Source: Bifidobacterium breve (lineage in GTDB: Bacteria; Actinomycetota; Thermoleophilia; Solirubrobacterales; Solirubrobacteraceae). From it: a stretch of DNA of 53,474 nucleotides. The stretch lies in NCBI GenBank assembly GCA_945878865.1, contig CAMCUD010000028.1:1-53474 (forward strand). Reading direction: 5' to 3'. Of the stretch, positions 5,390 through 33,294 are shown piece by piece. A program made the translations under genes and the position numbers. The notes below the pieces were generated by a model. It had not been told where the DNA came from. It saw nothing but the letters and a program-made list of their open reading frames with translations, and did no database searches. Position 1 is the stretch's first letter; every line of letters begins with the position of its first letter.

Positions 5390-6787
5390 TCAGGTGGCGT
5401 ACGCCTCGTCGTACGCCACCTGGATGTCTCTCCCCCGCGTGCGCAGGAACTCGCCGGCGGCCTCGATCGTCCGATCGATGTCCGCGTCGCTGTGGGCGTA
5501 GGACGTGAAGCAGCGGTTGGCGTAGAACGGCTGGATGTAGATGCCGCTGCTCAGCATGTGCCCCTGGAACTCCGCGTCGATGCCGGTGTCCTTCGTCACC
5601 GCGAACGCGGCGATGTCGCGGTAGTCGACGATCTCGCGGTCGGTGAAGTACAGGCACCACATCGACCCGAAGTTCAGGCACTGGGCGGGCAGGCCGAGCC
5701 GCTGCGCCTCGGCGTTGAGCTCGGCGGAGATCCGGTCGCCCACCGCGAACAGGCGCTCGTGGACCGGTTCGCGTTCGAGGATCTCGAGCGTCTTCAGCGC
5801 GGCCGCGACGCAGACGAGCTCGCCGTTGAACGTCCCCGAGTAGGACACCGGCCCCTCCGGCTCCATGAGCGACATGATGTCGTTGCGCCCCGCCAGGCCG
5901 GACACCGGGAACCCGTTCGCCACGGCCTTGCCGAACGTCGTGAGGTCGGGCGTGACGCCGTAGAGCTCCTGGCAGCCGCCGAGCGCGTGGCGGAAGCCGG
6001 TGATCATCTCGTCGAAGATCAGGACGACGCCGTGGCGGTCGCACAGCGCGCGGACGCGTTCGAGGAACCCCGGCTGCGGCAGCAGGACGCCGCAGGCGTG
6101 GCTGATCGGCTCGAGGACGACGCAGGCGACCTCGTCGCCGTGCTCGGCGAGGTAGGCCTCCAGGCCGTCGCCGTCGTTCCAGCGCAGGACCGTCGTGAGC
6201 GCGGTGATCGCCGCCGGCGTCCCCGCCGAGACGGGGACGGTGTGCGGCGCCTCAGGCGGGCCGGCGACGTCCATGGTCGGCTTCAGCGACTGCTGGACCG
6301 CGTCGTGCCAGCCGTGGTAGTGGCCCTCGAACTTCACGACCCGCTCGCGGCCCGTGAACGCCCGGGCGACCCGGACGGCGTGATACGTCGCCTCCGTCCC
6401 GGCGCACGTGAGGATGACCTTCTCGGCGCTCGGGAGGAGCTCGACGACCCGCTCGCACAGCTCGATCTCGGCCTCGTGCGGGAGCGCGAAGAGCACGCCG
6501 CGGTCCATCGCCTCGATCACCGCCTCGCGCACCTCGGGATGGTTCTGGCCGAGCACGGACGGCCCGAACGACGCGTGGTAGTCGATGTACTCGTTGCCGT
6601 CGAGATCCCAGAGGCGGGCGCCTGCGGCCCGGACGATCGTCAGCGGGTACGGGCGCCAGTAGCGCCCGCCGCCGATGACGCCGAGCGGGGCGCTGCGCTG
6701 CGCGCGCTCGTGGAACGCCGCGGACTTCGCCGTGCGGACCGTGAGGTCCTGGCGCTCGGGCACGCGGGCGTGATCCATCTCCAGCAT
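5390..6787 (-). CDS. Class III aminotransferase, glutamate-1-semialdehyde aminomutase-like
   Basis: PLP enzyme of 465 residues in the class III aminotransferase fold, closest in style to glutamate-1-semialdehyde aminomutase (GSAM). Seen: AGTEATYHAVRVAR for phosphate binding, GHYHGWHD, the PLP-ring aspartate in LIFDEMITGFR, and the Schiff-base lysine in FGKAVANGFP (about residue 287). Its setting, last in an operon behind HyuA-HyuB and an ABC importer, argues against a role in tetrapyrrole synthesis. Transfer or 1,2-shift of an amino group on a degradation product, for example a beta-amino acid, is more likely. The ATG overlaps the hyuB stop (TGATG), so the two genes are translationally coupled. 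A paralogue occurs in the divergent operon at 19954. Confidence 0.85.
   Translation of the reverse strand: MLEMDHARVPERQDLTVRTAKSAAFHERAQRSAPLGVIGGGRYWRPYPLTIVRAAGARLWDLDGNEYIDYHASFGPSVLGQNHPEVREAVIEAMDRGVLFALPHEAEIELCERVVELLPSAEKVILTCAGTEATYHAVRVARAFTGRERVVKFEGHYHGWHDAVQQSLKPTMDVAGPPEAPHTVPVSAGTPAAITALTTVLRWNDGDGLEAYLAEHGDEVACVVLEPISHACGVLLPQPGFLERVRALCDRHGVVLIFDEMITGFRHALGGCQELYGVTPDLTTFGKAVANGFPVSGLAGRNDIMSLMEPEGPVSYSGTFNGELVCVAAALKTLEILEREPVHERLFAVGDRISAELNAEAQRLGLPAQCLNFGSMWCLYFTDREIVDYRDIAAFAVTKDTGIDAEFQGHMLSSGIYIQPFYANRCFTSYAHSDADIDRTIEAAGEFLRTRGRDIQVAYDEAYAT
5391..5422. terminator. Perfect 13-bp hairpin between convergent genes
   Basis: CAGGTGGCGTACG at 5391-5403 and its exact complement at 5410-5422 enclose a 6-base loop. 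The hairpin starts 11 bases after the receptor stop and lies inside the last codons of the opposing aminotransferase gene. It could stop transcription from either side. There is no T-run on either strand, so intrinsic termination is not certain. Confidence 0.55.
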
Positions 6788-8553
6788 CAGGCGTCTCCTC
6801 CGCGCAGCGCGGCGGTCGCCGCCTCGTCGATCTCCCCCGCGCCGGTCAGCGCGACGCCGTAGCGCTCGCGGGCGGCCTCCGGCGAGACGTAGCCGGCGCG
6901 CACGTCGCGCGCCACGAGCTCCGGATCGCGCGTGAACGGGTCTCCCATCCCGCCTCCGCCGCCCGACCGGACGACGAACGCGTCGCCGGCGCGCAGCGGG
7001 ACGTTCGTGAACTTCCCGTCGGACTCCAGGCCGAGGTCGCGCATCGTCAGCCGCCGGCCCTCTCGCACGACCGCAAACGTGTTGCTGTCGCCCTCCTGGC
7101 CGCCGCGCGCGCCCCAGGGCGCGGACTTCCAGCGGTCGAGGAAGCCGCTGACGAGCGTCTCGGCGGTGCAGGTGAACACGCGCTCGTCGCCGACGCCGCC
7201 GCGGGTGTGCCCCGGCCCGGCGGAGTCGGTGCGCAGCTCGCGCTTCTCGAAGCGCACGGGGTAGCGCGACTCCCAGACCTCGATGGACTCGTTGCCGCAC
7301 ATCGCCATGCTGTGCCACTGCGTCGTCAGGCCGTCGGCGTGCGCGCGGGCGCCTCCCCCGCCGCCGCCCAGCGCGTACCACATGAACTCGCGGCCGTCCT
7401 CGGTCGTCCCCCACCCCGGGGCGTTCAGCCCGCTGGAGTAGCTGCCCGCGGTGACGCGGTCAGGGAGCACGTCGACGAAGCAGCGCAGCGTCGTCTCGTA
7501 GATCCGCGTCGTGGAGTCCGCGGGCGCGCAGCAGACGGGCGCCGGCCACGTCGGGTTGACGATCGTCCCCTCCGGCGCGGTGATCTCGATGAGGTCGCCG
7601 ACCGCCGAGTTGAACGGCGCCTCGGCGTCGACCACCGCCTTGAGCGCGGTGTAGACCGCCGCCTTCGCGCCCGCGATGGTGCAGTTCGCCGCGCCCGCGG
7701 CCTGCGGCGCGGAGCCCGTGAGGTCGACGTGGATGCGCTCGCCCTCCTTCGTCACCTTCACCACGACCGGGAACGGGCCGTTGCCGAAGCCGTCGTCGTC
7801 AAGCGCGTCGCGCGCCTCGTAGACGCCGTCGGGGATGACCTTCAGCCGCTCGGAGAAGCGCTTGGCCGCATAGGCGAACGAATGCGTGATGCCGGCCTCC
7901 ACCCGCTCGACGCCGTACCGGGCGACGAGGTCGGCGACCCGGTCGGCGGCCACGCGGGCCGAGGCGATCTGCGCCTGGATGTCCGCCCACACCTGGTCGG
8001 GCATCCGGACGTTGCGCAGGATGAACTGCTGGACCTCGCGGTTGAGTTCCCCGCCGCGCATGAGCTTGCACGGCGGGATGATCAGCCCCTCCTGCACGAC
8101 GTGGCGCGCGAGGCCGTAGCCGCCGGCGAACATCGCGCCGATGTCCGACCAGTGCCCGCGGTTGACACTGAAGCCCAGCAGCGTGTCGCCGTGGAACATC
8201 GGGACGCAGACGATGACGTCGGACTGGTGGTCGGCGCCCTCGAACGGATCGTTGTGCATGAGCACGTCGCCGGGCGCGACTGGGCCGACCGCGGCGAGCA
8301 CCGCCTGCAGCTCCTCGTCGAGCGCGCCGATGTGCACGGGGTTGCCGCCGGCCTGCGCGAACAGCCGGCCGTCGGCGTCGAACAGCCCGCACGTGAAGTC
8401 CAGCGCCTCACTGAGGCACGTCGAGTACGCGGCGCGAACCGTCACGTTGATCATCTCGCGCACCGCCGAGAGAAAGGCGTTGCGCAGGATCTCGTCGAGG
8501 AACGGATCCTCGGTCAGCTCATGGGAGCGTGATGCGGATGTTGGCGTGCTCAT
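6787..8553 (-). CDS. hyuB: Hydantoinase B / oxoprolinase-type subunit (copy 1)
   Basis: Large subunit of 588 residues of an ATP-dependent cyclic-amide hydrolase (N-methylhydantoinase, 5-oxoprolinase or acetone-carboxylase-like family). Family hallmarks seen are DFTCGLFDADGRLFAQ, HNDPFEGADHQSD, NRGHWSDIG, QEGLIIPP, the glycine-rich GGVGDERVF and GGGGGMGDPFTRDPE near the C-terminus. HyuB works as a heteromer with HyuA, which phosphorylates the substrate. The gene overlaps hyuA by 35 bases at its 5' end and the aminotransferase by one base at its 3' end. The ATG at 8553 is the only good start before the conserved domain. The family is certain; the substrate is not. Confidence 0.93.
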   Translation of the reverse strand: MSTPTSASRSHELTEDPFLDEILRNAFLSAVREMINVTVRAAYSTCLSEALDFTCGLFDADGRLFAQAGGNPVHIGALDEELQAVLAAVGPVAPGDVLMHNDPFEGADHQSDVIVCVPMFHGDTLLGFSVNRGHWSDIGAMFAGGYGLARHVVQEGLIIPPCKLMRGGELNREVQQFILRNVRMPDQVWADIQAQIASARVAADRVADLVARYGVERVEAGITHSFAYAAKRFSERLKVIPDGVYEARDALDDDGFGNGPFPVVVKVTKEGERIHVDLTGSAPQAAGAANCTIAGAKAAVYTALKAVVDAEAPFNSAVGDLIEITAPEGTIVNPTWPAPVCCAPADSTTRIYETTLRCFVDVLPDRVTAGSYSSGLNAPGWGTTEDGREFMWYALGGGGGGARAHADGLTTQWHSMAMCGNESIEVWESRYPVRFEKRELRTDSAGPGHTRGGVGDERVFTCTAETLVSGFLDRWKSAPWGARGGQEGDSNTFAVVREGRRLTMRDLGLESDGKFTNVPLRAGDAFVVRSGGGGGMGDPFTRDPELVARDVRAGYVSPEAARERYGVALTGAGEIDEAATAALRGGDA

Positions 8554-10504
8554 CGATCATCGCCTCGGCGTCGGTGGGGACATAGGTCGTGCTGTCGCTT
8601 TCCTCGATCAGCGCGGGGCCGTGGAGGCGCACCCCGGCCGCGAGGTCCTCGCGGGCGAACACCGGGGTCGCGCCGTCCGCGGTCTCGGCCATCGCGACGG
8701 GCGCCGGGTCGGCGCGGCCGCCGGTCCAGACCGGCGGCGGCGGCTCGCCGACCACGCCGATCGCGGTGACGCGCAGGTCCACGAGCTCGACGGGATCGCC
8801 CAGCCGCGTGCTGTACCGGTGCTCATGGGCGTCCTCGAACGCGGTGCGGATGGCGTCGGCGTCGAGCGCCTGCAGCGTCACCGGGAGCTCGTGTGACTGG
8901 CCGACGTAGCGCAGGTAGCCGACCCGGGTGACGGCGACGTCCTCGACGACGGGGTCCTCGGTCAGCGACGCGGTCGCCCGCGCTTCGAGCTCCTCGAGGA
9001 CCGCAGCGGCGGAGGCGATGCCCTCCGCGTTGACGGGCGCGAGCACGGTGCGGCTCTCGCTGCGGGCCAGCGACGCGCCGAGCAGGCCGAGCGCGCTGAA
9101 CACCGACGGCATCCACGGGACGATGACGCTGCGCATGCCGACCTCGCGCGCGACCTCGGCGGCGTGCTGCGGGCCGCACCCGCCGAACGCCACGAGGGTG
9201 TGCTCACGCGGGTCGATGCCCTGGAAGACCGTGATCTCCCTGATCGCCTGGGCCATGTTCGCGTTGACCGTCCGGTAGACGCCCCGCGCGAGGTCCAGGA
9301 CCGAGAGGCCGAAGTGCTCGGCCAGCGGCGCCAGCGCACCCTCCGCCAGAGACCGGTCGAGGCGGATGCCGCTCCGGCCCAAGAGGCTGTCCTCGCGCAG
9401 GAGCCCGAGGACGAGGTTCGCGTCGGTGACCGTCGGGCGGGTGCCGCCCAATCCGTAGGACGCCGGGCCGGGCGTGCTGCGCGCGCTCTCCGGCCCGACG
9501 GCCAGCGCACCGCCGGCATCGACGTGCGCGATGCTGCCGCCGCCCGCGCCGATCGCGGAGATGTCGAGCGTCTGCGTGCGGATCGGGACGCCGAACTCCA
9601 GCTCGAGCTCGTCGCGGTCGCCGGCTTCCTGATCGCGGATCACGCAGACGTCCGAGCTCGTCCCGCCGACGTCGAGCGTGATGAGGTGCGGGATGTCCGC
9701 GGCGCGGCCGAGCCGCCGGGCGCCGAGGACGCCGCCGGCCGGGCCGGAGTAGACGAGGTTGACGGGCGCCTTCGCCGCGTCGTCGACGCCCACCACGCCG
9801 CCGCTGGACTGCATGAAGCGCACCTCGGTCTCCAGCCCGAGCCCGTCCTGGAGCCGCTCCGCGTAGGAGGAGAAGGCGGGCAGCGCGTAGGCGTTGACCA
9901 CCGTCGTGCTGGCTCGTGCGTACTCGCGGATCCGCGGGTCGATCTCCGAGGAGCGCGAGATCCGCAGGTGCGGATGGCGCTCGCGGGCGACCTCCTCGAC
10001 GAGCAGCTCGTTCGCGGGGTTGGCGTACGCGTTGAGCAGGCAGATGGCGACCGCGTCGCACCCCTGCTCGACCAGGTCGTCCAGCACCCCGGCGATCTCT
10101 TCGCGTCCCGGCGCGAGGGCCACCTCACCGCTGGCGAGCGTGCGCTCGTCGACCTCGGCGCGCAGCCAGCGCGGCACGAGCGGCTCGACGGGCGACCACT
10201 GCACGTCGTACGGGTTGGGCTTCAGCCCCGACCCGATCTCCAGCAGGTCGCGGAAGCCGCGCGTGGAGACGAGGCCGACGACGGCGCCCTTGCGCTCCAG
10301 CACGAGGTTCGTGACGATCGTCGTCGCGTGCAGGAACAGGCCGATGTCGGCGGGCTCGAGCTCCGCGGCGGCGATCGCCTCGCTCAGCCCGTCGAGCGGG
10401 TCGGGCGTCGACAGCGTCTTGGCCTTCCCGATCGCCTGCGTCGCGTCGTCGAACCACACGAGATCGGTGAACGTCCCGCCGATGTCGATGCCGACCCGCT
10501 TCAT
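8519..10504 (-). CDS. hyuA: Hydantoinase A, ATP-binding subunit (copy 1)
   Basis: ATP-binding partner of HyuB, 661 residues, from the ASKHA-like hydantoinase/oxoprolinase group. The phosphate-binding loop DIGGTFTDLVWFD is at the N-terminus, followed by HATTIVTNLVLERKGA, LDVGGTSSDVCVI, SAIGAGGGSIAHVDAGGAL, DANLVLGLL, NMAQAIREITV and AFGGCGPQHA. The order and length match full-length HyuA. It would activate a cyclic amide by phosphorylation before hydrolysis by HyuB. The ATG at 10504 overlaps the cupin stop (ATGA), supporting this start over any upstream one. A second HyuA, clearly different in sequence, occurs at 21294. Confidence 0.93.
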   Translation of the reverse strand: MKRVGIDIGGTFTDLVWFDDATQAIGKAKTLSTPDPLDGLSEAIAAAELEPADIGLFLHATTIVTNLVLERKGAVVGLVSTRGFRDLLEIGSGLKPNPYDVQWSPVEPLVPRWLRAEVDERTLASGEVALAPGREEIAGVLDDLVEQGCDAVAICLLNAYANPANELLVEEVARERHPHLRISRSSEIDPRIREYARASTTVVNAYALPAFSSYAERLQDGLGLETEVRFMQSSGGVVGVDDAAKAPVNLVYSGPAGGVLGARRLGRAADIPHLITLDVGGTSSDVCVIRDQEAGDRDELELEFGVPIRTQTLDISAIGAGGGSIAHVDAGGALAVGPESARSTPGPASYGLGGTRPTVTDANLVLGLLREDSLLGRSGIRLDRSLAEGALAPLAEHFGLSVLDLARGVYRTVNANMAQAIREITVFQGIDPREHTLVAFGGCGPQHAAEVAREVGMRSVIVPWMPSVFSALGLLGASLARSESRTVLAPVNAEGIASAAAVLEELEARATASLTEDPVVEDVAVTRVGYLRYVGQSHELPVTLQALDADAIRTAFEDAHEHRYSTRLGDPVELVDLRVTAIGVVGEPPPPVWTGGRADPAPVAMAETADGATPVFAREDLAAGVRLHGPALIEESDSTTYVPTDAEAMIDEHANIRITLP

Positions 10505-10890
10505 GTGTCCTCCTGCTGGTAGGGCGTGGGCGGTGGGGGCATGACGACCCACGCGACCCGGTACGGCGACTCGAGCGGCGTGATGTTCACCGTCGAGCCG
10601 AAGCGGATGAGGCACAGTGCGCCCGCCTCCACGACGTCCACGCGCTCCTCCTCGTGGGCCGGGAAGGCGGTGCTGCGGTACTCGGCGCTGCCGGAGATCG
10701 CGTAGTGCATCTCCGTGTGCGGGAAGGGATACGGCACGACCGTCGGCTGGTCGAACTCGATGAATCCGGCCGTCGCCTCGGGGTCGTTGACGGCCCAGTC
10801 GCAGAGAAAGCGGTGCCGTCCGAGCAGCATCGTCTCGCGGCGAAGCCTCGCGGTGTCGAACGCCGCGATCTGCAGTGCGGATCTCGCCAT
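10501..10890 (-). CDS. Small cupin-fold protein
   Basis: 129 residues, about the size of a single beta-barrel cupin domain. PHTEMHYAISGSAEYRS is the first cupin motif, with its His/Glu/His metal ligands, and EAGALCLIRFGSTVNI fits the second, less conserved half. It starts 2 bases after the permease stop and ends overlapping hyuA, so it is an integral part of the operon. Cupins in such places are often isomerases, small dioxygenases or ligand sensors. Nothing in the sequence picks one. Confidence 0.75.
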   Translation of the reverse strand: MARSALQIAAFDTARLRRETMLLGRHRFLCDWAVNDPEATAGFIEFDQPTVVPYPFPHTEMHYAISGSAEYRSTAFPAHEEERVDVVEAGALCLIRFGSTVNITPLESPYRVAWVVMPPPPTPYQQEDT

Positions 10891-10892
10891 CG

Positions 10893-11789
10893 TCACTCGG
10901 CCCAGCGGGTGGCCCAGTCCAGCGCCCGGCTGGCGGCCCACAGGGAGGCCGCGGCGAGGATCAGGGTGATGAACGCCACGAGGGCCAGCAGGTTCGTCCG
11001 GCCGAAGAACTCGGCGCTCTGGACGATCTTCCCCAGCCCGTACTCCTGGCCGAGGTACTCCGAGGCGATGACGGCGCTCCAGCCGAAGCCGACCGAGAGC
11101 AGCACGCCGGCGCGCAGCTGTGGCAGCGCGGCCGGCAGGATCACCTCGACGTAGGTGCGCACCGGCGAGGCGCCGAGGCTCTGGGCGAACTGCGCGTAGT
11201 ACGACGCGACGTTGCCGATCGCGTTGAGCGCGATGGCGAACACCAGCGCGAAGGCGGTGAACGCGACGAAGAGGATCGACCCGTGCTCGGTGTTGCCGAA
11301 CCACAGCCCGAACAGCGGCACCATCGCGAGCAGCGGCAGCATCCGCGCGAAGTGGCCGGGAAGCGTGAAGATGTCGCGCAGGACACGCGACCAGCTCACG
11401 CACACGGCGAGCCCGATGCCCGCGCCGATGCCCAGGAGGAGGCCGACGAGCAGGCGGTACCCGGAGAGGCCGACGTTGTAGAGAAACCCGAGGATGACGC
11501 CCTGCGCCGTGACGTCGCCGCCGACCTTCGTCGCCTCGACACCGAGGCCGCCGCGCCAGTAGTCGGCGAACCGCGGCACGGCGTTGGCGATGTCGACGAT
11601 CGTCGGGACCATCGCCTCGTTGGACTTGTTCTCCCCCGCGATCGCCGAGACCACGTGCCAGAGGATCAGCATCACCCCGACCGACGCGACGACGACCCAC
11701 GGGCGCATCGCCTTCGCGGTGGTCGCCGACGCCGACCCGCCGCCACCCAGGCGGCGCATCGGCGCGCGGCTGACGCTGGCGGCGCTCAT
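10893..11789 (-). CDS. ABC transporter permease (nitrate/taurine/THI5 type), second subunit
   Basis: 298-residue integral membrane protein. A helix near residues 32-48 anchors the N-terminus, and the BPD_transp_1 domain fills the C-terminal two thirds. The cytoplasmic coupling loop (FAQSLGASPVRTYVEVILP) matches the EAA motif that docks the ATPase. It follows the ATPase gene with an ATGA overlap. With the other permease (12562-13437) it would form a heterodimeric channel of the SsuC/TauC/ThiX type. A short extra periplasmic segment (GENKSNEAMVPTIVDIANA) precedes the transporter fold. Confidence 0.88.
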   Translation of the reverse strand: MSAASVSRAPMRRLGGGGSASATTAKAMRPWVVVASVGVMLILWHVVSAIAGENKSNEAMVPTIVDIANAVPRFADYWRGGLGVEATKVGGDVTAQGVILGFLYNVGLSGYRLLVGLLLGIGAGIGLAVCVSWSRVLRDIFTLPGHFARMLPLLAMVPLFGLWFGNTEHGSILFVAFTAFALVFAIALNAIGNVASYYAQFAQSLGASPVRTYVEVILPAALPQLRAGVLLSVGFGWSAVIASEYLGQEYGLGKIVQSAEFFGRTNLLALVAFITLILAAASLWAASRALDWATRWAE

Positions 11790-13437: not shown

Positions 13438-13444
13438 GAGAGAC

Positions 13445-17739: not shown

Positions 17740-17744
17740 ACGGA

Positions 17745-17785: not shown

Positions 17786-17845
17786 GGACGACGTGGCCAG
17801 GGCGGCGCTACCGAGAGCAGCCGCCGACGATCAGCCTGTTCTTGC

Positions 17846-25305: not shown

Positions 25306-25718
25306 TCGAACGCCTGACGATCGAGGCGGGCGCCTGGACGTTCGGCGCCCGGCTCGAGCTTGACGCCGCACCGAAGACGTGTGCGGCGTTCGTCTCGCGG
25401 CTGCCGTTCGAGGGCCGGCTCGTCCACGTGCGCTGGAGCGGCGAGGCGTCGTGGATCCCGCTCGGCGACTTCGACTTCGAGGTCGGCGCCGAGCACGCCA
25501 CGAGCCACCCCGCGAAGGGCGAGGTCCTGCTCTACCCGGGCGGGCTGAGCGAGACGGAGGTGCTCGTCCCGTACGGGCCGACGCTCTTCTCCAGCGTCGT
25601 CGGCCAACTCGCAGGCAACCACTTCCTCACGATCGACGAGGGCCTCGAGCACCTGCGCGCGCTCGGCGAGGCGACCCTGTGGCAGGGCGCCCAGCCGATC
25701 CGCTTCACAGCGTCGTGA
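25302..25718 (+). CDS. DUF3830 family cyclophilin-like protein
   Basis: 138 residues resembling DUF3830, a cyclophilin-like barrel often found near amidohydrolases and amide transporters. Typical pieces are the N-terminal ELDAAPKTCAAFVSRLPFEG, with a short strand-helix pattern like cyclophilin, GEVLLYPGG and LAGNHFLTI. The GTG at 25302 overlaps the previous stop (GTGA), which fixes the start. The last 14 bases overlap the end of the convergent dihydropyrimidinase gene. The biochemical role of the family is not known; it could bind a ring-opened amide or assist assembly of a hydrolase. Confidence 0.7.
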   Translation: MIERLTIEAGAWTFGARLELDAAPKTCAAFVSRLPFEGRLVHVRWSGEASWIPLGDFDFEVGAEHATSHPAKGEVLLYPGGLSETEVLVPYGPTLFSSVVGQLAGNHFLTIDEGLEHLRALGEATLWQGAQPIRFTAS

Positions 25719-27090
25719 CGGCATCCGGCGCCGGCGCGTAGAGCGCGTCGGCGAACGGGCCGGTCGCCAGGAACGTCCCGGCGGGCCGGTCGTCGACGAG
25801 CTCGCCGTCGCGCACGATCGTCCGCCCGCCGGCCATCGTCAGCCGCAGGGCGCCGCGGACCTCCTTGCCCTCGTAGAGCGAGTACCCCGAGTTCGTGTGC
25901 TCGCTGGCCGCCCCGAGCGTCCGGGTGGCCGCGGGGTCGACGAGCACGAGGTCGGCGTCCGCCCCCGGAGCGACGACGCCCTTGCGCGGGAAGAGGCCGA
26001 ACGCGCGCGCCGGGTGCTCGCAGAGCACCTGCACGAGCCGCGGAAGCGTGATGCGCCCCCGCAGCGCGCCGTCGAGCACGATCGGCAGCATCGTCTCGAT
26101 CGACGGCGCGCCGAAGCCGGCTTCGAGCAGGGGCAGATCGCGCTCGGCCACGAGCTTCTTGGGAACGTGGTCCGAGCCGACGGTCTGCAGCGCGCCGTCC
26201 GCCAGGCCGGCCCAGAGCGCCTCGTTGTCGTCGGCGGTGCGCAGCGGCGGTCCGATCTTCGCCAGCGCGCCCCACTCGCGGACGGCCTCGCCGGTGAGCG
26301 CGAGGTACTGCGGGCACGTCTCGGCGATGAGGAACTGGCCCCGACCGCGCGCGGCGCGCACCACGTCGAGCGCCCGGCGGGAGGTCACGTGGACGATGAA
26401 GACGGGCACCTCGAGGGCCTCCGCGACCGCAGCGACCCGGTAGACCGCTTCGGCCTCCAACACATCGGGGCGGCTGCGAAGCAGCGCATCGACCGGATCC
26501 TCGGCCAGGCGGCCGGCGGCGGCTTCGGCCTCCAGCACGTCGATGACCGGCCCGTTCTCGCAGTGCACGAGCACGAGGCCGCCCACGTCACGCGACGTCC
26601 GCAGCACATCGACGAGTGCGGCGTCATCGGTCATCCATCCCTGCGCGGCGTACGCGAGGAAGATCTTGAACGTCCGCACGCCCGTCGCCGCGACGGCCGC
26701 CATCTCGTCGACCTGGCGCGGCGCGTCGAACATCCCCGCGTGGATCGTGTAGTCGAGCACCGATCCCTGCTCGCACCGGGCGCGCAGCGCCTCGACCTCC
26801 TCGAGCAGCGACTGGCCAGGATGGGCGTAGGCGAAGCCCATCATCGTCGTGACGCCGCCGTACGCGCCGACGATCGACGTCTCGCGCGGGTCGTCGTGGT
26901 AGATCGGGTGGACGTGCTCGTCGATGATGCCCGGCAGCACGAGCAGCCCATCCGCGTCGATCGTCTCGCGCGCCGGTCCGAGATCGTCGCCGACGGCGAC
27001 GATCCTGCCCCCGTCGACCGCGACGTCCGCGCGGGTCTCCCCCGCGCCCGACACCACGACACCGCCGCGCACAAGGACGTCGAACTTCAC
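25705..27090 (-). CDS. Dihydropyrimidinase / hydantoinase-like amidohydrolase
   Basis: 461-residue cyclic-imide hydrolase. The full binuclear metal set is visible: DEHVHPIYHDD (HxH), the carboxylated lysine in TFKIFLAYAAQG, VHCENGP, FIVHVTS and GSDHVPKKL. CPQYLALTGE and the terminal KGVVAPGADADLVLVDP are also typical. It would open dihydropyrimidines or hydantoins to N-carbamoyl amino acids, the substrate class of the M20 enzyme upstream in operon C. The start is the GTG at 27090, because VKFDVLVRGG is the family N-terminus. It has no Shine-Dalgarno sequence of its own but overlaps the stop of a nine-codon frame that does (see the leader at 27087). The gene lies 202 bases after the MFS gene. 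Confidence 0.87.
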   Translation of the reverse strand: MKFDVLVRGGVVVSGAGETRADVAVDGGRIVAVGDDLGPARETIDADGLLVLPGIIDEHVHPIYHDDPRETSIVGAYGGVTTMMGFAYAHPGQSLLEEVEALRARCEQGSVLDYTIHAGMFDAPRQVDEMAAVAATGVRTFKIFLAYAAQGWMTDDAALVDVLRTSRDVGGLVLVHCENGPVIDVLEAEAAAGRLAEDPVDALLRSRPDVLEAEAVYRVAAVAEALEVPVFIVHVTSRRALDVVRAARGRGQFLIAETCPQYLALTGEAVREWGALAKIGPPLRTADDNEALWAGLADGALQTVGSDHVPKKLVAERDLPLLEAGFGAPSIETMLPIVLDGALRGRITLPRLVQVLCEHPARAFGLFPRKGVVAPGADADLVLVDPAATRTLGAASEHTNSGYSLYEGKEVRGALRLTMAGGRTIVRDGELVDDRPAGTFLATGPFADALYAPAPDAVTTL

Positions 27091-27116: not shown

Positions 27117-27292
27117 GACGGGTCCTTCGGTGGTGTCCGTACCGCGCGGGGCGCGCTGACCGAACCCTTCCATCCGGTGCGCGGCGCGCCCATCGCCACC
27201 CCGGCCAATCCGCCGCCGTGGACCCGCGCCACGCGGTCGGCAGCACGCCGATTCGTTCCGTGCAGCGGAAGCGACGGCCCTGTCCCTTCCGC
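27117..27292. promoter_or_regulatory. Regulatory gap before the dihydropyrimidinase, with operator-like sites
   Basis: This gene-free stretch carries TTCCGTGCAGCGGAA at 27256-27270, with perfect TTCCG/CGGAA arms and flanking bases (CG before, GCG after) matching the site at 15036. A weaker relative, TTCCGCTCAGCGAA, lies at 27287-27300 across the MFS stop codon. They suggest that the dihydropyrimidinase has its own promoter controlled by the same regulator as operons A and B. No convincing -10/-35 was found. Confidence 0.5.
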
Positions 27293-28654
27293 TCAGCGAA
27301 CCGCGCCGGACGCGGCCACGCGAGCTGCGGGAACCGCCAGCGCGGTGACGGCCGCGCAGCCGACGACCGCCGTGCCGAGCGAGGTCGCGTCGACCAGCGC
27401 GCCCGCGAACGCGGCGCCGATCGCGCCACCCGTGACGAAGATGAGGTTGAACACGCCGATGGCGATCCCCCGGTCGCCCGCGGGCACCAGATCGGCCAGC
27501 CGGTCGAGCAGCGCCACCTGCGCGCCGGCGAAGCCCGCCGTCGCGGCGGCGGAGCCCACCACGACGCACGGCGCCAGCCCGTGCCCGACCCCGGCGACGA
27601 GCATCCCGCCGCACGCCGCGACACCGAGGGCCGCGAGGATGCGCTCGGCCGAGATCCTTGCGCGCAGGCGGCCCACCGCCGTGGCCGTCGCGGCGGCCGC
27701 GAACGCCGCGGGCAGGAGGATGACCCCGACCTCCAGCGCCGGACGATCGACGCCGTCGGTCAAGAGCAGCGGCGCGAGGAATCCCATGGCGAGGAACCCG
27801 GCCATGAGCGCGGCCGCGCCGAGCGACAGCGCGACGAAGACCGGGTTGCGCACGACCGTCAGCGGCAGGAACCCGTTCGGTGCGCGGCGCACGTGGCGCG
27901 TGAGCGTCGCCGCCGCGCCCATCGTGATCGCGGCGACCGCGGCGATGAGCGGCGCGCTCAGATGTGTCGTGCGCGCCTGCAGCAGCACGGAGCAGCCGGC
28001 GCCGACCGCGAGCACCAGTCCGGCGCCCGGCAGGTCCAGCCGCGCCTCGGCGCCGGCCAGCGGCGGTGCCGCCAGCCGTGCCAGGGCGGGAGCGGCCAGG
28101 AGCATGATCACGCTGAGCGCGAGCGCCGCCCTCCAGCCCGCGAGCGCCTCCGCGGCGGCGCCGAACAGCGGCCCGGAGCCGAGGGTCAGCGCCGCCAGCG
28201 CGGTCATGATCCCCAGCGCATGGGCCCGCGCCGCGCCGTCGAGACGGTGGGCGGGCAGCGCGAACGCGACGATCGACAGCCCACTGGACGCGCCGCCCTG
28301 CAGGAAGCGGCCGACGAGCAGCACCGGAAGCGACGGCGCGAGCAGGACGATCGACGTGCCGAGCAGCGCGCACGCGGACGCGATCCCGACAACGCGCCGC
28401 CCGCCGTGCAGGTCGGCCAGGCGCCCGAACACCGGCGTCATGACCGCGATGCCGAGCGAGAACAGCGCGAGCACCCAGGCGGTCTGCGCGGTCGAGATGG
28501 CGAGGTCGTCGGCGACCTGGCGGCTCACGATCGGGGCGCCCGCGAGCCCGAGCCCGCTCGTGCCGGCCACGTACCCGAGCAGCAGCCCGAGGCGCACCGG
28601 CCCGATCGCGCGTCTGGGCGGGGCCGCACCGGTGCCGGCGCGGGCCGCGGTCAC
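27293..28654 (-). CDS. MFS transporter
   Basis: About 453 residues with 12 to 14 predicted transmembrane helices. The loop FGRLADLHGGRRVVGIAS matches the conserved GxLaDrxGrr signature between helices 2 and 3 of the major facilitator superfamily, and the overall pattern resembles drug:H+ antiporter members. It would export or import a small solute, perhaps a pathway substrate or end product. The GTG at 28654 overlaps the IclR stop (GTGA), the joint used across this operon; a GTG at 28657 is equally possible and adds one residue. It is the last gene before a 202-base gap. Confidence 0.88.
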   Translation of the reverse strand: MTAARAGTGAAPPRRAIGPVRLGLLLGYVAGTSGLGLAGAPIVSRQVADDLAISTAQTAWVLALFSLGIAVMTPVFGRLADLHGGRRVVGIASACALLGTSIVLLAPSLPVLLVGRFLQGGASSGLSIVAFALPAHRLDGAARAHALGIMTALAALTLGSGPLFGAAAEALAGWRAALALSVIMLLAAPALARLAAPPLAGAEARLDLPGAGLVLAVGAGCSVLLQARTTHLSAPLIAAVAAITMGAAATLTRHVRRAPNGFLPLTVVRNPVFVALSLGAAALMAGFLAMGFLAPLLLTDGVDRPALEVGVILLPAAFAAAATATAVGRLRARISAERILAALGVAACGGMLVAGVGHGLAPCVVVGSAAATAGFAGAQVALLDRLADLVPAGDRGIAIGVFNLIFVTGGAIGAAFAGALVDATSLGTAVVGCAAVTALAVPAARVAASGAVR

Positions 28655-29424
28655 CACGTCATCGCACGGGCGGGCGTGGTCCCCATCGCCGCCGACAGAT
28701 CCTCCGCGGCGCTCAGCAGCGCGTCGAGCAGGCCTGTGCCGATGCGTGATCCCAGCCGCTCGCGATGTCCGATGACCCCGAGGCTGCGCGGGGCCTCACC
28801 AGGCGGGCCGGGGATCGCGGCCGCGTACGCCGCGACCCCGAGCTCGATCTCCTGGTCGCACACCGCAAAGCCACGGTCCCGGGTCGCGGCGAGGTCCCCG
28901 AGGATCTCGTCGATCGTCGTCATCGTGTACTGCGTGAACTGCTCGAGCTGGACGCTGGCGAGCAGCTGCCGCGCCTCGTCCTCGGTCAGGTGCGCGAGGA
29001 TCGCCTTCGCCGCCGCGGACGCGTGGAGCGTCATGCGCCGTCCGAGCGGGACCCGGACGCTCATGCGGTGCGGCTCCGTCGTCTCCACCGACCGCACGCA
29101 CACGACCTCGCCGTCGGTGAGGTTGCTGAAGTAGAAGCACTCCTGCCAGCGGTCGCGCAGCGACGCCAGCACCGGGTCGACCAGCGCGCCGTAGCCGGCC
29201 GCGGGACTCACCGAGCTTGCGATCCGCACGAGTCCGATGCCCGGGCGCCACCGCTTGGTCGTGTCGTCGCGCTCGACCATCCCCGACGCCGACAGGGAAC
29301 GCAGCAGCCGGTGGCAGGTCGCCGGCGCGAGCCCGGTCTGGCGCGACAGCTCGGACAGCGTCACGCCGCCGGGCGCCTCGGCGACCCGCTGCATGATGCT
29401 GACGACACGATCGATGGTCTGCAT
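28651..29424 (-). CDS. IclR-family transcriptional regulator
   Basis: 257 residues: an N-terminal winged helix-turn-helix (VTLSELSRQTGLAPATCHRLLRSL as a whole; recognition part PATCHRLLRSL) and a C-terminal ligand-binding domain with the typical GRRMTLHASAAAKAILA stretch. It lies 3 bases after the M20 gene and is co-transcribed with the catabolic genes. IclR proteins usually bind 14-15-bp palindromes and respond to a pathway intermediate. The TTCC-N7-GAA elements near operons A, B and C are its best candidate targets. AllR, which controls allantoin use, belongs to this family, in keeping with the local enzymes. Confidence 0.9.
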   Translation of the reverse strand: MQTIDRVVSIMQRVAEAPGGVTLSELSRQTGLAPATCHRLLRSLSASGMVERDDTTKRWRPGIGLVRIASSVSPAAGYGALVDPVLASLRDRWQECFYFSNLTDGEVVCVRSVETTEPHRMSVRVPLGRRMTLHASAAAKAILAHLTEDEARQLLASVQLEQFTQYTMTTIDEILGDLAATRDRGFAVCDQEIELGVAAYAAAIPGPPGEAPRSLGVIGHRERLGSRIGTGLLDALLSAAEDLSAAMGTTPARAMTW

Positions 29425-29427
29425 GGC

Positions 29428-30681
29428 TCAGCCCTCGGGGGTGGTCGTGGTGAGATCGGGGTCGGCGACGCCGCGCGCGTCCCGGTCCAGGCGACGCAGC
29501 GCGCGCGCCACGACGGCGCAGGCGACGGCGACGTCCTCGGTGCGACACGCCTCGTCAGGCGTGTGGCTGCGGCCGTTCGGCGTCGGCACGAAGAGCAGCG
29601 CTGACGGCGCGGTGTGGGCGACGACCGCCGCGTCGTGGCCGGCCCCGGACGGCAGGACGCGGAAGGGCAGACGCTCCTCCCCGCAGGCCTGCGCCAGCGC
29701 GAGGCGCGGCCACGCGCTGAGCATCACCGGCGCGCGCGACGCCAGCTCGCGGATCTCGACCGGCGTGCCGCGGGCCCCGGCGATGCGCGTGATCGCGGCG
29801 CGGACGGCGGCGGCCGCCTCGTCCTGGCGACCGGCGTCGACGTCGCGCACGTCGACGACGAGCCGGACCCCGCCGGGGACCGTCGTCACGCTGTTGGGGT
29901 GCACGTCGAGGCGGCCGACGGTTGCGACGCCGTGGCGCGCCTCGCGCCCGATCCGCTCGACTTCGAGGACGACCTCCGCCGCCGCGGTGAGGGCGTCGAG
30001 TCGGTCGTCCATGGGCGTCGTGCCGCTGTGCTCGGGCCGGCCCCCCAGCTCGACCTCGAGCCGCGCTGCGCCGGCGATCACGTCGACCACGCCCAGCCGC
30101 ACACGCTCGCGCTCGAGCACACGGCCCTGCTCGATGTGCACCTCCAGGTACGCGGCGACCTCCGGAGCCCGCAGCCACGGCGGGCACGCCTCGGGCCGCA
30201 GTCCGCTCTCATGCGCCACGTCCGCGGCGCTGCGCCCTTCGCCGTCGCGCAGGCCGTCGAGCAGCCCGTCGGGCGCCGCGCCCGTCGCCAGCTCGCTGCC
30301 GAGGCACGGCCGGCCGAACCGCGCGCCCTCCTCGGCGCTGAAGATCACGACGCGCATCCCGAGCTCCAGCTCGGACGCCACGCTCGCGGCCGCCTCCATC
30401 CCGGCGAGCACACCGACGGTGCCGTCGTAGCGGCCGCCCTCCGGGACGCTGTCGAGATGCGAGCCGACGAGCAGGTACGGCTCACCCTCGCCGTAGATCA
30501 ACACGGTGTTGCCGGCCGGGTCGGTCTCCGCGCGCGCGCCGTCCTGCGCCGCCCACGCCGCGACCTGGGCGTGCGCATCGCGTTCCAGCGCGCCGAACGA
30601 CGGTCGGGTGACGCCCGGGCCGCCGGCGGAGATCTCCGCGAGCGCGGCGAGGCGCGTGTCGAGCCGCTCGGCCACCGTCAC
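29428..30681 (-). CDS. M20-family N-carbamoyl amino acid / allantoate amidohydrolase
   Basis: 417-residue metallo-amidohydrolase that removes a carbamoyl group from ring-opened ureides. Metal-site motifs: VGSHLDSVPEGGRYDG, FSAEEGARFGRPCLGSE and, near the end, SHTPDEAC. SGTTPMDDRLDAL belongs to the dimerisation/lid region, and GAGHDAAVV carries the substrate-binding part. Relatives are hydantoin-utilisation carbamoylase, allantoate amidohydrolase and beta-ureidopropionase. The GTG at 30681 overlaps the phosphoribosyltransferase stop (GTGA). It is the logical next step after the hydantoinases of this island. Confidence 0.88.
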   Translation of the reverse strand: MTVAERLDTRLAALAEISAGGPGVTRPSFGALERDAHAQVAAWAAQDGARAETDPAGNTVLIYGEGEPYLLVGSHLDSVPEGGRYDGTVGVLAGMEAAASVASELELGMRVVIFSAEEGARFGRPCLGSELATGAAPDGLLDGLRDGEGRSAADVAHESGLRPEACPPWLRAPEVAAYLEVHIEQGRVLERERVRLGVVDVIAGAARLEVELGGRPEHSGTTPMDDRLDALTAAAEVVLEVERIGREARHGVATVGRLDVHPNSVTTVPGGVRLVVDVRDVDAGRQDEAAAAVRAAITRIAGARGTPVEIRELASRAPVMLSAWPRLALAQACGEERLPFRVLPSGAGHDAAVVAHTAPSALLFVPTPNGRSHTPDEACRTEDVAVACAVVARALRRLDRDARGVADPDLTTTTPEG

Positions 30682-31178
30682 GGCAGCAGCTCCCGCTCGC
30701 GGTACAGCACGGTCACCGGGACCCCGGCCTCCTCGACGGCGTACGCGCCGCCGGCCTCGCGGTCGACGACGGCGAGGACCCGCCGCACGTCGAGGTGCGC
30801 ATCGCGCAGCCGCGCGACGGACTCCAGCGCGTGCGCGCCGGTCATCACGACGTCCTCGACGAGCACGACGCGCGCACCCGGGAAGGCGTCCCCGGCGAAG
30901 CCGCCCTCGTCGCGTTCGAGCATGAGCGTGAGGTCGGTGCGCAGGGCGAGCGCCGTGGCGAGCGCGACGGCGACCGGTCCTCGAGCGGCCAGCCGGTCGG
31001 CGTCGGCGTCGACCGCGCCGGCGAGCAGGTCCGCGCACCGCGCCAGGACGCCGGGACGCGCGAGCACCATCTCGGTCTGAAACCAGTGGCTCGCGCCGTG
31101 CGCGAAGGTCCCGCGCAGGTAGCCGCCGCGACCCAGGTCGCCGGCGAGCGCGTCCCGATCGACCGTCGCCGCGCTCAT
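30678..31178 (-). CDS. Short orotate-phosphoribosyltransferase-like protein
   Basis: 166 residues of the type I phosphoribosyltransferase fold. The PRPP-binding motif VVLVEDVVMTGA is near residues 110-121, and a flexible loop segment (ERDEGGFAGDAFPGA) precedes it. True orotate phosphoribosyltransferases have about 210 residues, so the N-terminal hood is short. Found inside a catabolic operon, it may salvage a released base or act on a related heterocycle rather than serve pyrimidine synthesis. The ATG overlaps the cupin stop and its 3' end overlaps the M20 gene. Confidence 0.75.
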   Translation of the reverse strand: MSAATVDRDALAGDLGRGGYLRGTFAHGASHWFQTEMVLARPGVLARCADLLAGAVDADADRLAARGPVAVALATALALRTDLTLMLERDEGGFAGDAFPGARVVLVEDVVMTGAHALESVARLRDAHLDVRRVLAVVDREAGGAYAVEEAGVPVTVLYRERELLP

Positions 31179-31849
31179 GCGTAGTTGCGCACCTCCACGC
31201 AGGTGTAGCCCTCGGAGGTCAGGAACGGCCCATGGTCGACACCCGGCCCCTTGGCGGTGAACGTCCCCGCGGGGTGGAACTCGTCGCCCATCTTGTAGGA
31301 CCCCTCGAGGATCATCACTTCCTCGCTGTGGTCGTGGTTGAACACGCCCGTGGCGATGCCCGGCTCGACCCACAGCAGCCGTGTCGCCGAGCCGGACGGC
31401 CCGATCGTCAGCAGCTTCTCCCACACGCCCTCAGGGGAGCCCTCGGGCCGCGTCCACGGCATCTGCTCGATGTCGATCGGGTAGAGCCGGACGGCGGGCT
31501 TGTCCATGGACGGCCCGTGGTAGTCACGGAACTCCAGGCACGTGTAGCCCTCGACGGTGGAGAACGGCCCGTGCGGCACGCCCGGCCCCTTGCAGGTGAA
31601 CGTCCCGGCCGGGTGGAACTCCTCGCCCATCTTGTAGGAGCCCTCAAGGATGAGGACCTCCTCCCAGTGGTCGTGCGTGAAGACGCCGGTGCCCACGCCT
31701 GGTTCGACGCGCAGCAGCCGCGTCACCGACCCGGTCTCGGGGTCGAGGGCGAGGACCTTCTCCCACACGCCGTCGGGTGCGCCGTCGGGCCGCACCCATT
31801 CCATGAGCTCGACGTCGATGGGATACAGGCGGGTCAGGGGCTTGGGCAC
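31175..31849 (-). CDS. Tandem-duplicated cupin protein
   Basis: 224 residues made of two nearly identical cupin units of about 110 residues. Each contains RLYPID(V/I)E, GVWEK, the metal motif HDH(W/S)EEV, ILEGSYKMG(E/D)EFHPAGTF and GPGV(P/D)HGPF. The repeated unit is so alike that the duplication or its homogenisation must be recent. The GTG at 31849 has AGGAG five bases upstream, overlapping the stop of the preceding amidohydrolase. Cupins of this ChrR-like type can be dioxygenases, isomerases or metal-binding sensors; the reaction is unknown. The ATGA joint to the phosphoribosyltransferase gene shows it belongs to the operon. Confidence 0.82.
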   Translation of the reverse strand: MPKPLTRLYPIDVELMEWVRPDGAPDGVWEKVLALDPETGSVTRLLRVEPGVGTGVFTHDHWEEVLILEGSYKMGEEFHPAGTFTCKGPGVPHGPFSTVEGYTCLEFRDYHGPSMDKPAVRLYPIDIEQMPWTRPEGSPEGVWEKLLTIGPSGSATRLLWVEPGIATGVFNHDHSEEVMILEGSYKMGDEFHPAGTFTAKGPGVDHGPFLTSEGYTCVEVRNYA

Positions 31850-31857
31850 GGAGGCTC

Positions 31858-33294
31858 CTACGCGACGGTGGTCTGCGGAACGGTGGAAGACAGGAGCGCC
31901 GCGAGCCGGTCGGCCAGCGGCTGCTGCTCGGCGGTCGCGGCAGCAAGGGCGGGCTGCAGCTCGGCGGCGCGGGCGGCGATCGCACCGAGGTCGACGTGCA
32001 GCGGCAGGCCGTCGCGCAGCACGGGACGGCCGGCGACCCACGCCTCGCGCAGCCCGTGGCCGAGGCCGCCCATCACGAGCTGCATGGGCAGGTCGACGCC
32101 GTCGATGATCCCGGCGGCGAGCGGGTCGACGAGCAGGAGGTCGGCGTGCGCGCCCGGAGCCAGCACGCCGAGCTCGTCGCCGAGCCCGATCGCCGCGGCG
32201 CCACCGGCGGCGGCGAGCGCCCACACGTCGCCGGGCGTCAGCCACGCCGCGGCGGGCTCCTCCGGGCGCGTGTTGTGCAGCGCCAGGCGCGCTTGGGCCA
32301 GCGGGTCCTGCGGACCGCCGGTGGTCCAGCTGTCGCACCCCAGGCCGACGGTCACCCCGGCCTCCAGGACGGCGCGCAGGTCCAGCCGGCCGCTGCCGAG
32401 GCTGAGGTTGCTCAGCGGGTTGTGGACGAGCGCCGCGCCGGCCTCGTGCAGGCGCGCGAGGTCCGCGGCATCGAGGTGCACCCCGTGCGCCACGGATAGC
32501 CCGGCGCGCAGCAGGCCGTGGTCGGCGAGGATCCCGAGCGAGTCGCCGCCGGCGCGCTGCTGCGGCGTCTCGAGCAGATGGACGTGCAGGCCGAGCCCGT
32601 GCTCCGCGGCGAGCGCGGCGACCGCGTCGAGCAGCGCGCCGCTGCAGCGCTCGGGCGTCGAGGGCCCCAGCAGGACCGTGATCCGATCGTGCCCGGCGGC
32701 GGCCTCGATGAGCTCGCGGCAGCGCAGGATCTGGCTCTCGGTCGTCGGCGCGCCGCGCGTGTCGGCCGCCGCCACGTCGGCGCGCACGTCCGGCGCCACC
32801 CCGTGGAGGCTGTCGGCGAACGCCACGTCCTGGACCTGCGCGGCGAGGGCGACCCGCGCGCCCACCGCGCTGTAGGCGTCGACGAGCGCCTGCGCGTGTC
32901 CCTCGCCGAGCGTGGCGTGATCGAGCGTCGTCGTGGCGCCGTGGCGCAGCGCGTCGACGGCGCTCAGCGTGGCCGCGACCGCGGCGCCCTCGGCGGTGAG
33001 CCCCGCGCCGCTGGCCACCGCGCCGGGGAGCCACGGCTCGAGGCGGTCGGTCGCCAGGCCGTGACGGCACAGCTGCGCGTAGGAGTGCGTGTGCGCGTCG
33101 ACGAGGCCGGGCAGCACGAGCAGGCCGTCGGCGCGGACGGTGTGGGCGGCCGCGGGTCCCTCGCCCGGCTCGGCGAGGTCCGCGATCCGCCCGCCGGCCA
33201 GCAGGAGATCGGCGTCGGCAGGCCCGTCCTGCGTCAGGACACGGCCGCCGGCGATGCGGACGTCGGCTTTTCGCTCATCGGGAAGGGTTTTCAT
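31858..33294 (-). CDS. TrzA/AtzA-type amidohydrolase (heterocycle deaminase-like)
   Basis: 478-residue mononuclear-metal hydrolase heading operon C. The metal ligands are visible in DAHTHSYAQLCRHG, HVHLLET, VAHGVHL and the catalytic Asp region LGCDSWTTGG. The C-terminal beta domain reads LGVLAPGAHADLLLVDP. Family members deaminate or dechlorinate triazines, guanine, 8-oxoguanine or methylthioadenosine. It is distinct from the CodA-like enzyme at 15149 and the two cyclic amidohydrolases, giving four amidohydrolase-superfamily members in the island. The ATG at 33294 is preceded by a 108-base non-coding stretch. Confidence 0.87.
   Translation of the reverse strand: MKTLPDERKADVRIAGGRVLTQDGPADADLLLAGGRIADLAEPGEGPAAAHTVRADGLLVLPGLVDAHTHSYAQLCRHGLATDRLEPWLPGAVASGAGLTAEGAAVAATLSAVDALRHGATTTLDHATLGEGHAQALVDAYSAVGARVALAAQVQDVAFADSLHGVAPDVRADVAAADTRGAPTTESQILRCRELIEAAAGHDRITVLLGPSTPERCSGALLDAVAALAAEHGLGLHVHLLETPQQRAGGDSLGILADHGLLRAGLSVAHGVHLDAADLARLHEAGAALVHNPLSNLSLGSGRLDLRAVLEAGVTVGLGCDSWTTGGPQDPLAQARLALHNTRPEEPAAAWLTPGDVWALAAAGGAAAIGLGDELGVLAPGAHADLLLVDPLAAGIIDGVDLPMQLVMGGLGHGLREAWVAGRPVLRDGLPLHVDLGAIAARAAELQPALAAATAEQQPLADRLAALLSSTVPQTTVA

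What the first reader, a model, noticed from the sequence alone, without database searches (positions are those of the whole stretch)
5390..33294. A 28-kb island with two HyuAB pairs, four amidohydrolases and two class III aminotransferases
Three coupled operons hold two distinct ATP-dependent HyuA-HyuB hydrolases, an M20 carbamoylase, CodA-like, allantoinase-like, dihydropyrimidinase-like and TrzA-like amidohydrolases, a dimethylformamidase-like subunit, two GSAM-like aminotransferases, a THI5-type importer and an IclR regulator. The divergent operons A and B both carry the HyuA-HyuB-aminotransferase trio in different order. No single described pathway (Rut, reductive pyrimidine, allantoin, creatinine, hydantoin) uses this whole set. 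A deamination, ring opening, decarbamoylation and amino-transfer route for a substituted N-heterocycle is inferred. Dihydropyrimidine dehydrogenase and sarcosine oxidase are not in the window.
Basis: partly seen in the sequence, partly recalled or inferred. Interest (0 to 1): 0.72.

Follow-up and report, generated by a model that had tools for sequence, protein, structure and literature searches.

The report
Genus-specific cyclic-amide breakdown gene island
This 28-kb stretch of an actinobacterial chromosome is a real, conserved set of import and degradation genes that most likely takes up ring-shaped nitrogen compounds, opens the ring, strips off the attached urea or acyl group and recovers the amino nitrogen; the parts are known kinds but this combination has not been described as one pathway.

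Summary
In detail: two HyuA-HyuB pairs, two class III aminotransferases (AT), four amidohydrolases, an M20 carbamoylase, a dimethylformamidase-like (DMF) protein, an NMT1/THI5-type importer, MFS and IclR. The whole order, with flanks, is collinear in two other members of the genus (Svornostia, Solirubrobacterales), and partly in another genus. HyuA1/HyuA2 and HyuB1/HyuB2 are sister pairs, AT1/AT2 probably so: the trio duplicated within this lineage. It was not found elsewhere. DUF3830 is a recurrent neighbour of hydantoinase/dihydropyrimidinase and M20 genes in bacteria and archaea; DMF-like genes recur beside class III ATs or HyuAB. Best reading: a chromosomal catabolic island for cyclic ureides/lactams (import, ring opening, decarbamoylation or deacylation, transamination). 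No substrate is shown. Reductive pyrimidine and uric-acid routes lack their entry enzyme in the genome by the single profiles tried. CodA has a changed metal site, so the deamination step is doubtful.

The parts
5390..6787 (-). AT1, class III aminotransferase, GSAM-like but without GSAM's C-terminal Glu (..YANRCF..); PLP Lys present
6787..8553 (-). HyuB1 (CapB-like); Asp, HxxD, His metal residues present
8519..10504 (-). HyuA1 (CapA-like); phosphate motifs present, adenosine loop RSTPGP instead of GxxPGP
10501..10890 (-). 129-aa ORF of unknown family, ATGA overlap with HyuA1; this spacer is far shorter in G010
10893..11789 (-). ABC permease
11786..12559 (-). ABC ATPase (SaoA/TauB/NtrCD type)
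12562..13437 (-). ABC permease
13445..14824 (-). NMT1/THI5-type binding protein, Tat-type lipoprotein leader
14928..14946 (-). 19-bp element TTGGCCCGGCGGGCGCTAT in the divergent promoter of operons A and B (candidate operator)
15149..16396 (+). CodA-like amidohydrolase with altered metal site (HLLVDDSDD)
16393..17739 (+). DHO, cyclic amidohydrolase; nearest solved relative L-hydantoinase 1gkr
17793..17811 (+). second copy of the element, GTGGCCAGGGCGGCGCTAC, before DMF
17846..19957 (+). DMF: DMFase large-subunit/N-acetyl-(R)-beta-phenylalanine acylase-like; Fe ligands Tyr, Tyr, Glu conserved
19954..21297 (+). AT2, class III aminotransferase, GSAM-like, Glu replaced (..TLRGF..)
21294..23282 (+). 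HyuA2 (CapA / N-methylhydantoinase-like), all three ATP motifs present
23279..24988 (+). HyuB2 (CapB-like), metal residues present
24985..25305 (+). ~105-aa small protein, weak REDY/HapK (dimeric barrel) similarity
25302..25718 (+). DUF3830 protein (relative of 3kop), neighbour of cyclic-ureide genes elsewhere
25705..27090 (-). DHP, D-hydantoinase/dihydropyrimidinase-like (357 bits; equivalog cut-off 393)
27186..27211 (-). weaker copy of the element in the MFS-DHP spacer
27293..28657 (-). MFS transporter
28651..29424 (-). IclR-family regulator
29428..30681 (-). M20 N-carbamoyl-amino-acid hydrolase-like
30678..31172 (-). PyrE-like phosphoribosyltransferase (TIGR00336 46 bits, below cut-off)
31175..31849 (-). 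double ChrR-type cupin
31858..33294 (-). TrzN/AtzA/8-oxoguanine-deaminase-like amidohydrolase, metal residues present

Best explanation
The island is a chromosomal, vertically maintained, probably co-regulated catabolic unit for cyclic amides (cyclic ureides such as hydantoins/dihydropyrimidines, and related lactams) as nitrogen and probably carbon source. An NMT1/THI5-type ABC importer and the MFS bring in the ring compound. Metal-dependent cyclic amidohydrolases (DHP, DHO) and the ATP-dependent HyuAB pairs open the ring. M20 removes the carbamoyl group, and the iron-dependent DMF-like enzyme removes an acyl or formyl group. The freed amino acid, plausibly beta- or omega-type, is transaminated by AT1/AT2. 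The two HyuAB-AT trios arose by duplication and probably serve two related substrates or successive steps. Shown: gene identities, most catalytic motifs, synteny, duplication of HyuAB, neighbourhood associations. Inferred: substrate class, order of steps, co-regulation by IclR.
For: Family assignments and motifs. Whole-order synteny in the genus. DUF3830 next to dihydropyrimidinase in Azospirillum and Aureimonas, M20 in Halorubrum and Natrinema, AllE and M20 in Paracoccus, amidohydrolases and an Asp/Glu racemase in Rhizobium, and M20-amidohydrolase-DUF3830-IclR in other genera of the window's family. Congeneric islands carry a dihydropyrimidinase over the equivalog cut-off (TIGR02033, 573 bits, cut-off 393). 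DMF-like genes beside a class III AT and an ABC importer in Variovorax and Roseomonas, and beside HyuB-HyuA in G040. The best characterised non-GSAM relative of AT1 is 6k8h, the beta/gamma-amino-acid transaminase StoTA (PMC10589169). AT1's sister clade sits beside an enolase-superfamily protein and an AstE/AspA deacylase. HyuAB-AT logic precedent: caprolactamase pathway (PMC6061476). A matrix built from the A/B promoter alone ranks the DHO-DMF spacer second in all three genomes.
Against: No substrate, expression or enzyme data. CodA has lost the E. coli-type metal His and catalytic Glu. DMF lacks the adjacent small ORF seen next to several DMF-like genes; the Paracoccus large subunit is inactive without its small subunit (PMC7686228). 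AT1/AT2 do not meet the aromatic beta-transaminase motif at V43 or E75. PRTase, cupins, DUF3830 and the small ORF have no assigned step. The cluster differs by single genes within the genus.
Confidence: 0.55

Rival explanations
1. Several unrelated salvage operons lie side by side: operon C (Trz-cupin-PRTase-M20-IclR-MFS-DHP) is one cyclic-ureide module, while operons A/B (importer, HyuAB-AT trios, DMF) serve another class of substrate such as lactams or N-acyl amines.
For: M20-amidohydrolase-DUF3830-IclR modules occur alone in other genera. The same genome has a Trz-M20-DHP-ABC cluster without HyuAB on C2 and HyuAB clusters without detected M20 on C14. DMF-like genes elsewhere pair with AT and importer only.
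Against: All three operons stay together in order across the genus; DUF3830, the usual partner of M20/DHP, lies in operon B; the shared element occurs at the A/B promoter and inside B, with a weaker copy in C.
Confidence: 0.3
2. The class III enzymes are racemases or epimerases of the ring-opened or free amino acid (the role of the Asp/Glu-type hydantoin racemase) rather than transaminases.
For: HyuAB and DUF3830 clusters elsewhere often carry an Asp/Glu racemase; no such family was hit in the island's scanned ORFs. Class III includes racemases among AT1's more distant PDB matches.
Against: Nearest solved relatives are GSAM, D-phenylglycine AT and beta-transaminases; racemases score far lower.
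Confidence: 0.12
3. It is a reductive pyrimidine or purine/allantoin salvage cluster.
For: Dihydropyrimidinase- and allantoate amidohydrolase-like genes, a PyrE-like PRTase, a Trz near 8-oxoguanine deaminase.
Against: No match over cut-off to the DPD profile tried and no uricase (PF01014) in the genome; AllB and AllC cut-offs not met.
Confidence: 0.12

Closest known systems
Caprolactam pathway of Pseudomonas jessenii (CapAB plus omega-aminotransferase; PMC6061476, PMC8453981)
   Same: ATP-dependent HyuA/HyuB-type ring amide hydrolase followed by a class III aminotransferase; HyuA/HyuB best NCBIfam hits are CapA/CapB
   Different: Scores far below the CapA/CapB cut-offs (433-438 and 255-262 of 1000); AT is GSAM-like; no aldehyde dehydrogenase found in the island; many amidohydrolases added
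Hydantoinase-carbamoylase system
   Same: Cyclic amidohydrolases plus M20 N-carbamoyl-amino-acid hydrolase; DUF3830 is a neighbour of such genes
   Different: No Asp/Glu-type hydantoin racemase found; two ATP-dependent HyuAB pairs and two AT genes added
Dimethylformamidase / N-acetyl-(R)-beta-phenylalanine acylase
   Same: Fe ligands Tyr399, Tyr440, Glu521 and the nearby His519 conserved in DMF
   Different: 703 aa instead of ~775; no adjacent small ORF; amide substrate unknown
GSAM-like beta/gamma-amino-acid transaminases (StoTA 6k8h, VpAT 4ao9)
   Same: Same class III subgroup; PLP Lys and carboxylate Arg present; GSAM Glu lost
   Different: VpAT V43 and E75 positions differ (W/E and S/G)

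Membership tests
ATP-dependent hydantoinase/oxoprolinase (HyuAB) | HyuA ATP motifs DxGGTxTD, D(V/M)GGT, GxxPGP | tested here: met
   HyuA2 all three; HyuA1 first two, but RSTPGP in place of GxxPGP in all three orthologues
ATP-dependent hydantoinase/oxoprolinase (HyuAB) | HyuB metal residues Asp, His-x-x-Asp, His | tested here: met
   present in HyuB1 and HyuB2; motif from PMC8453981
Caprolactamase CapAB | NCBIfam equivalog cut-off 1000 bits | tested here: not met
   CapA 433-438, CapB 255-262 bits
Caprolactam pathway | adjacent semialdehyde dehydrogenase | tested here: not met
   no aldehyde dehydrogenase family among the scanned island ORFs
GSAM (HemL) | hemL equivalog cut-off; C-terminal Glu (E406, recalled numbering) | tested here: not met
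   AT1 385.5 and AT2 278.3 of 527.3; Glu replaced in all island ATs, kept in the HemL-like clade
Class III aminotransferase | Aminotran_3 family with PLP-binding Lys | tested here: met
   GK motif aligned
Aromatic beta-transaminase (VpAT type) | R41, V43, E75, Y76 (PMC9850050) | tested here: not met
   R present; V43 is W/E; E75 is S/G; Y76 is F/Y, read by hand from the alignments
Dimethylformamidase large subunit family | Fe ligands Y399, Y440, E521 | tested here: met
   alignment; residues from PMC7686228
Dimethylformamidase | small subunit | tested here: not met
   no small ORF directly upstream of DMF, unlike Variovorax, Rhodococcus and Rhizobium loci
Dihydropyrimidinase (TIGR02033) | equivalog cut-off 393 | tested here: not met
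   window DHP 357; the extra copy in S. abyssi, 573, meets it
Hydantoinase/carbamoylase family amidase (TIGR01879) | subfamily cut-off 204 | tested here: met
   M20 297 bits
Cytosine deaminase CodA | metal ligand His214 and catalytic Glu217 (recalled numbering) | tested here: not met
   aligned positions are L and D; G031 and G010 orthologues also lack them
Reductive pyrimidine pathway | dihydropyrimidine dehydrogenase in the genome | tested here: not met
   NF006183 (recalled to be DPD) 33.7 of 335 bits
Uric acid/allantoin pathway | uricase; AllB and AllC cut-offs | tested here: not met
   PF01014 absent; AllB 267 of 358, AllC 201 of 598
Any of these | substrate and activity | not testable with these tools
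   needs assays

The most novel reading that the evidence does not exclude
A not yet described catabolic route in which duplicated ATP-dependent ring hydrolase plus GSAM-like PLP enzyme trios, an iron-dependent DMFase-like acylase and an M20 carbamoylase act on one family of cyclic amides, with the GSAM-like enzyme carrying out a beta- or omega-amino acid transamination (or replacing the usual hydantoin racemase).
Probability: 0.3. Interest if true: 0.6.

Novelty: new variant of a known kind. Interest (0 to 1): 0.38.

Why it matters
If confirmed, it would give a substrate class to GSAM-like class III aminotransferases and DMFase-like acylases of catabolic clusters, and would establish DUF3830, which no paper in the held library mentions, as a part of cyclic-ureide catabolism with a testable role. 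The HyuAB-AT trio could also supply enzymes for making non-natural amino acids from lactams or dihydropyrimidines.

Tried and rejected
Recent horizontal gain: rejected (even GC; flanking genes collinear in the genus). AT1/AT2 as haem-pathway GSAM: rejected (cut-offs and Glu position). Trio as a widespread unit: not found; AT2 has no match at E<=1e-80 in 395 other genomes sampled from the phylum, AT1 homologues lack HyuAB nearby, and the six plasmid AT1- or HyuA-like loci examined show no trio. Caprolactam pathway as such: no dehydrogenase, low scores. Reductive pyrimidine and uric acid routes: entry enzymes not found. The shared element as a genome-wide regulon: with two mismatches the pattern is at or below its control count; only the two island sites match exactly, but the pattern was written from them, so only the matrix test is independent. 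Literature: no paper on DUF3830 and none that holds dimethylformamidase, hydantoinase and aminotransferase together. The DMF relatives scan of genome contigs gave only three loci. Structure prediction was not used: few homologues were eligible for an alignment, and the main folds are known from sequence.
Full report
What is there. The window is a whole 53-kb contig (C28) of a 4.96-Mb draft genome in the same genus as Svornostia abyssi J379, Solirubrobacterales. Between 5390 and 33294 codon-position statistics and family scans give three runs of genes. Operon A (minus): binding protein, permease, ATPase, permease, a 129-aa ORF, HyuA1, HyuB1, AT1. Operon B (plus): CodA-like, DHO (L-hydantoinase-like), DMF, AT2, HyuA2, HyuB2, small dimeric-barrel-like protein, DUF3830. 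Operon C (minus): Trz, double cupin, PyrE-like PRTase, M20, IclR, MFS, DHP. Gene ends overlap by a few bases at many joints (for example DMF-AT2-HyuA2-HyuB2), as expected of operons.

Conservation. The complete order, with the MCP/FAD genes on one side and polA on the other, is collinear in S. abyssi and in a Solirubrobacteraceae MAG at 65-91% amino-acid identity. A third genome, of another genus, has DMF-AT2-HyuA2, DHO and the importer in the same arrangement on a short contig, without CodA between DHO and the binding protein. Two differences exist inside the genus. The relatives carry one more amidohydrolase between the small ORF and DUF3830, which is a dihydropyrimidinase by NCBI's own cut-off in S. 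abyssi (573 against 393 bits) and is missing here; the nearest copy in this genome is a 63% identical gene on C2. The window has a 129-aa ORF between permease and HyuA1 whose place is taken by a much shorter spacer in S. abyssi.

The trio. HyuA1 and HyuA2 are sisters among the 24 HyuA rows sampled (support 100/99), HyuB1 and HyuB2 likewise among 36 rows (100/99); AT1 and AT2 group with weaker support (90/84). The tree program warns that the long branches of HyuA1 and HyuA2 meet. So the two trios most simply come from one duplication, followed by a change of order. No other genome sampled has the trio: AT2 has no close relative in 395 other phylum genomes, AT1 relatives at 40-50% are not beside HyuAB, and HyuAB pairs on plasmids go with Asp/Glu racemase, M20 or cupin genes.

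Catalytic competence. HyuB1 and HyuB2 keep the Asp/His/Asp/His metal residues and HyuA2 all ATP motifs described for CapAB (PMC8453981); HyuA1 has Arg for Gly in the adenosine loop in all three orthologues. DMF keeps the iron ligands Tyr399, Tyr440 and Glu521 and the nearby His519 of Paracoccus dimethylformamidase (PMC7686228); another solved relative is an N-acetyl-(R)-beta-phenylalanine acylase. M20 is closest to N-carbamoyl-L-amino acid hydrolase. DHO, DHP and Trz keep their metal residues in the alignments shown. CodA does not: the position of the E. coli metal His is Leu, and the catalytic Glu is Asp; a His two residues earlier is conserved in the orthologues. A deamination step by CodA is therefore doubtful. 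AT1 and AT2 have lost GSAM's C-terminal Glu and carry an Arg next to that position. The best characterised non-GSAM relative of AT1 is 6k8h, the beta/gamma-amino-acid transaminase StoTA (PMC10589169). They do not meet the aromatic beta-transaminase motif at V43 and E75 (PMC9850050).

Neighbourhood evidence for the substrate class. DUF3830 sits beside dihydropyrimidinase in Azospirillum and Aureimonas, between M20 and a hydroxyacid dehydrogenase in Halorubrum and Natrinema, near AllE and M20 in Paracoccus, near amidohydrolases and an Asp/Glu racemase in Rhizobium, and beside an acetamidase and a ring-opening amidohydrolase in Skermanella (one locus, Thalassospira, shows no such context). In other genera of the window's own family it sits in an M20-amidohydrolase-DUF3830-IclR group. 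DMF-like genes sit beside a class III aminotransferase and an ABC importer in Variovorax and Roseomonas, near aminotransferases in two Rhizobium plasmids, and beside HyuB-HyuA in G040; in several other genomes neither is nearby. AT1's sister clade sits between an enolase-superfamily protein and an AstE/AspA deacylase. Together these point to removal of an N-carbamoyl or N-acyl group followed by amino transfer.

Coupling of the operons. A position matrix built only from the divergent A/B promoter of four genomes ranks the DHO-DMF spacer second, after the training site itself, in the window, S. abyssi and G031; the MFS-DHP spacer ranks fourth in the window. In the whole genome the IUPAC form has exact matches only at the two island sites, though it was written from them, and mismatch-level hits are at background. 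This is moderate evidence for a shared operator; the IclR protein is the obvious candidate.

Comparison with what is known. That appears true of the whole set, but the core logic, ATP-dependent lactam opening by a HyuA/HyuB pair followed by a class III aminotransferase, is described for caprolactam in Pseudomonas jessenii (PMC6061476). The hydantoinase-carbamoylase route and its dihydropyrimidine variant giving beta-amino acids are also described (PMC3281772). The island is not the caprolactam pathway (scores far below cut-off, no aldehyde dehydrogenase found), nor by the profiles tried a reductive pyrimidine or uric acid pathway (that NF006183 stands for dihydropyrimidine dehydrogenase is from memory).

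Verdict. A real, genus-specific catabolic island with a new combination of known enzyme families. Its substrate and the roles of the PRTase, cupins, DUF3830 and small ORFs are open. Interest is moderate.

Noticed in passing
G000:C14:45000-89999 (L054, L055, L151): A second HyuAB-rich region holds eight of the genome's eleven HyuB genes but only two of its five HyuA genes, with its own NMT1-type importer (39-67% identical to the window's) and MFS. Many HyuB paralogues with few HyuA is unusual.
   Followed up: partly
G000:C2:18000-29000 (L150): ABC importer, amidase, polysaccharide-deacetylase family protein, SnoaL-like protein, Trz, M20 and dihydropyrimidinase in one run: a second, simpler cyclic-ureide cluster in the same genome.
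   Followed up: partly
window 8519-10504: HyuA1 and its orthologues carry Arg in place of Gly in the GxxPGP adenosine loop, unlike HyuA2.
   Followed up: no
window 15149-16396: CodA-like subfamily with HLLVDDSDD where cytosine deaminase has HCDEIDD: an amidohydrolase with a displaced metal ligand.
   Followed up: partly
window 10501-10890: 129-aa ORF without Pfam match, its stop overlapping the HyuA1 start; the corresponding spacer in S. abyssi is far shorter.
   Followed up: no
L099:8173-11680 (G109): AT1's sister-clade aminotransferase lies between an enolase-superfamily protein and AstE/AspA-family deacylases, a layout shared by several other genomes of the class; it may be an undescribed N-acyl amino acid pathway.
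   Followed up: partly
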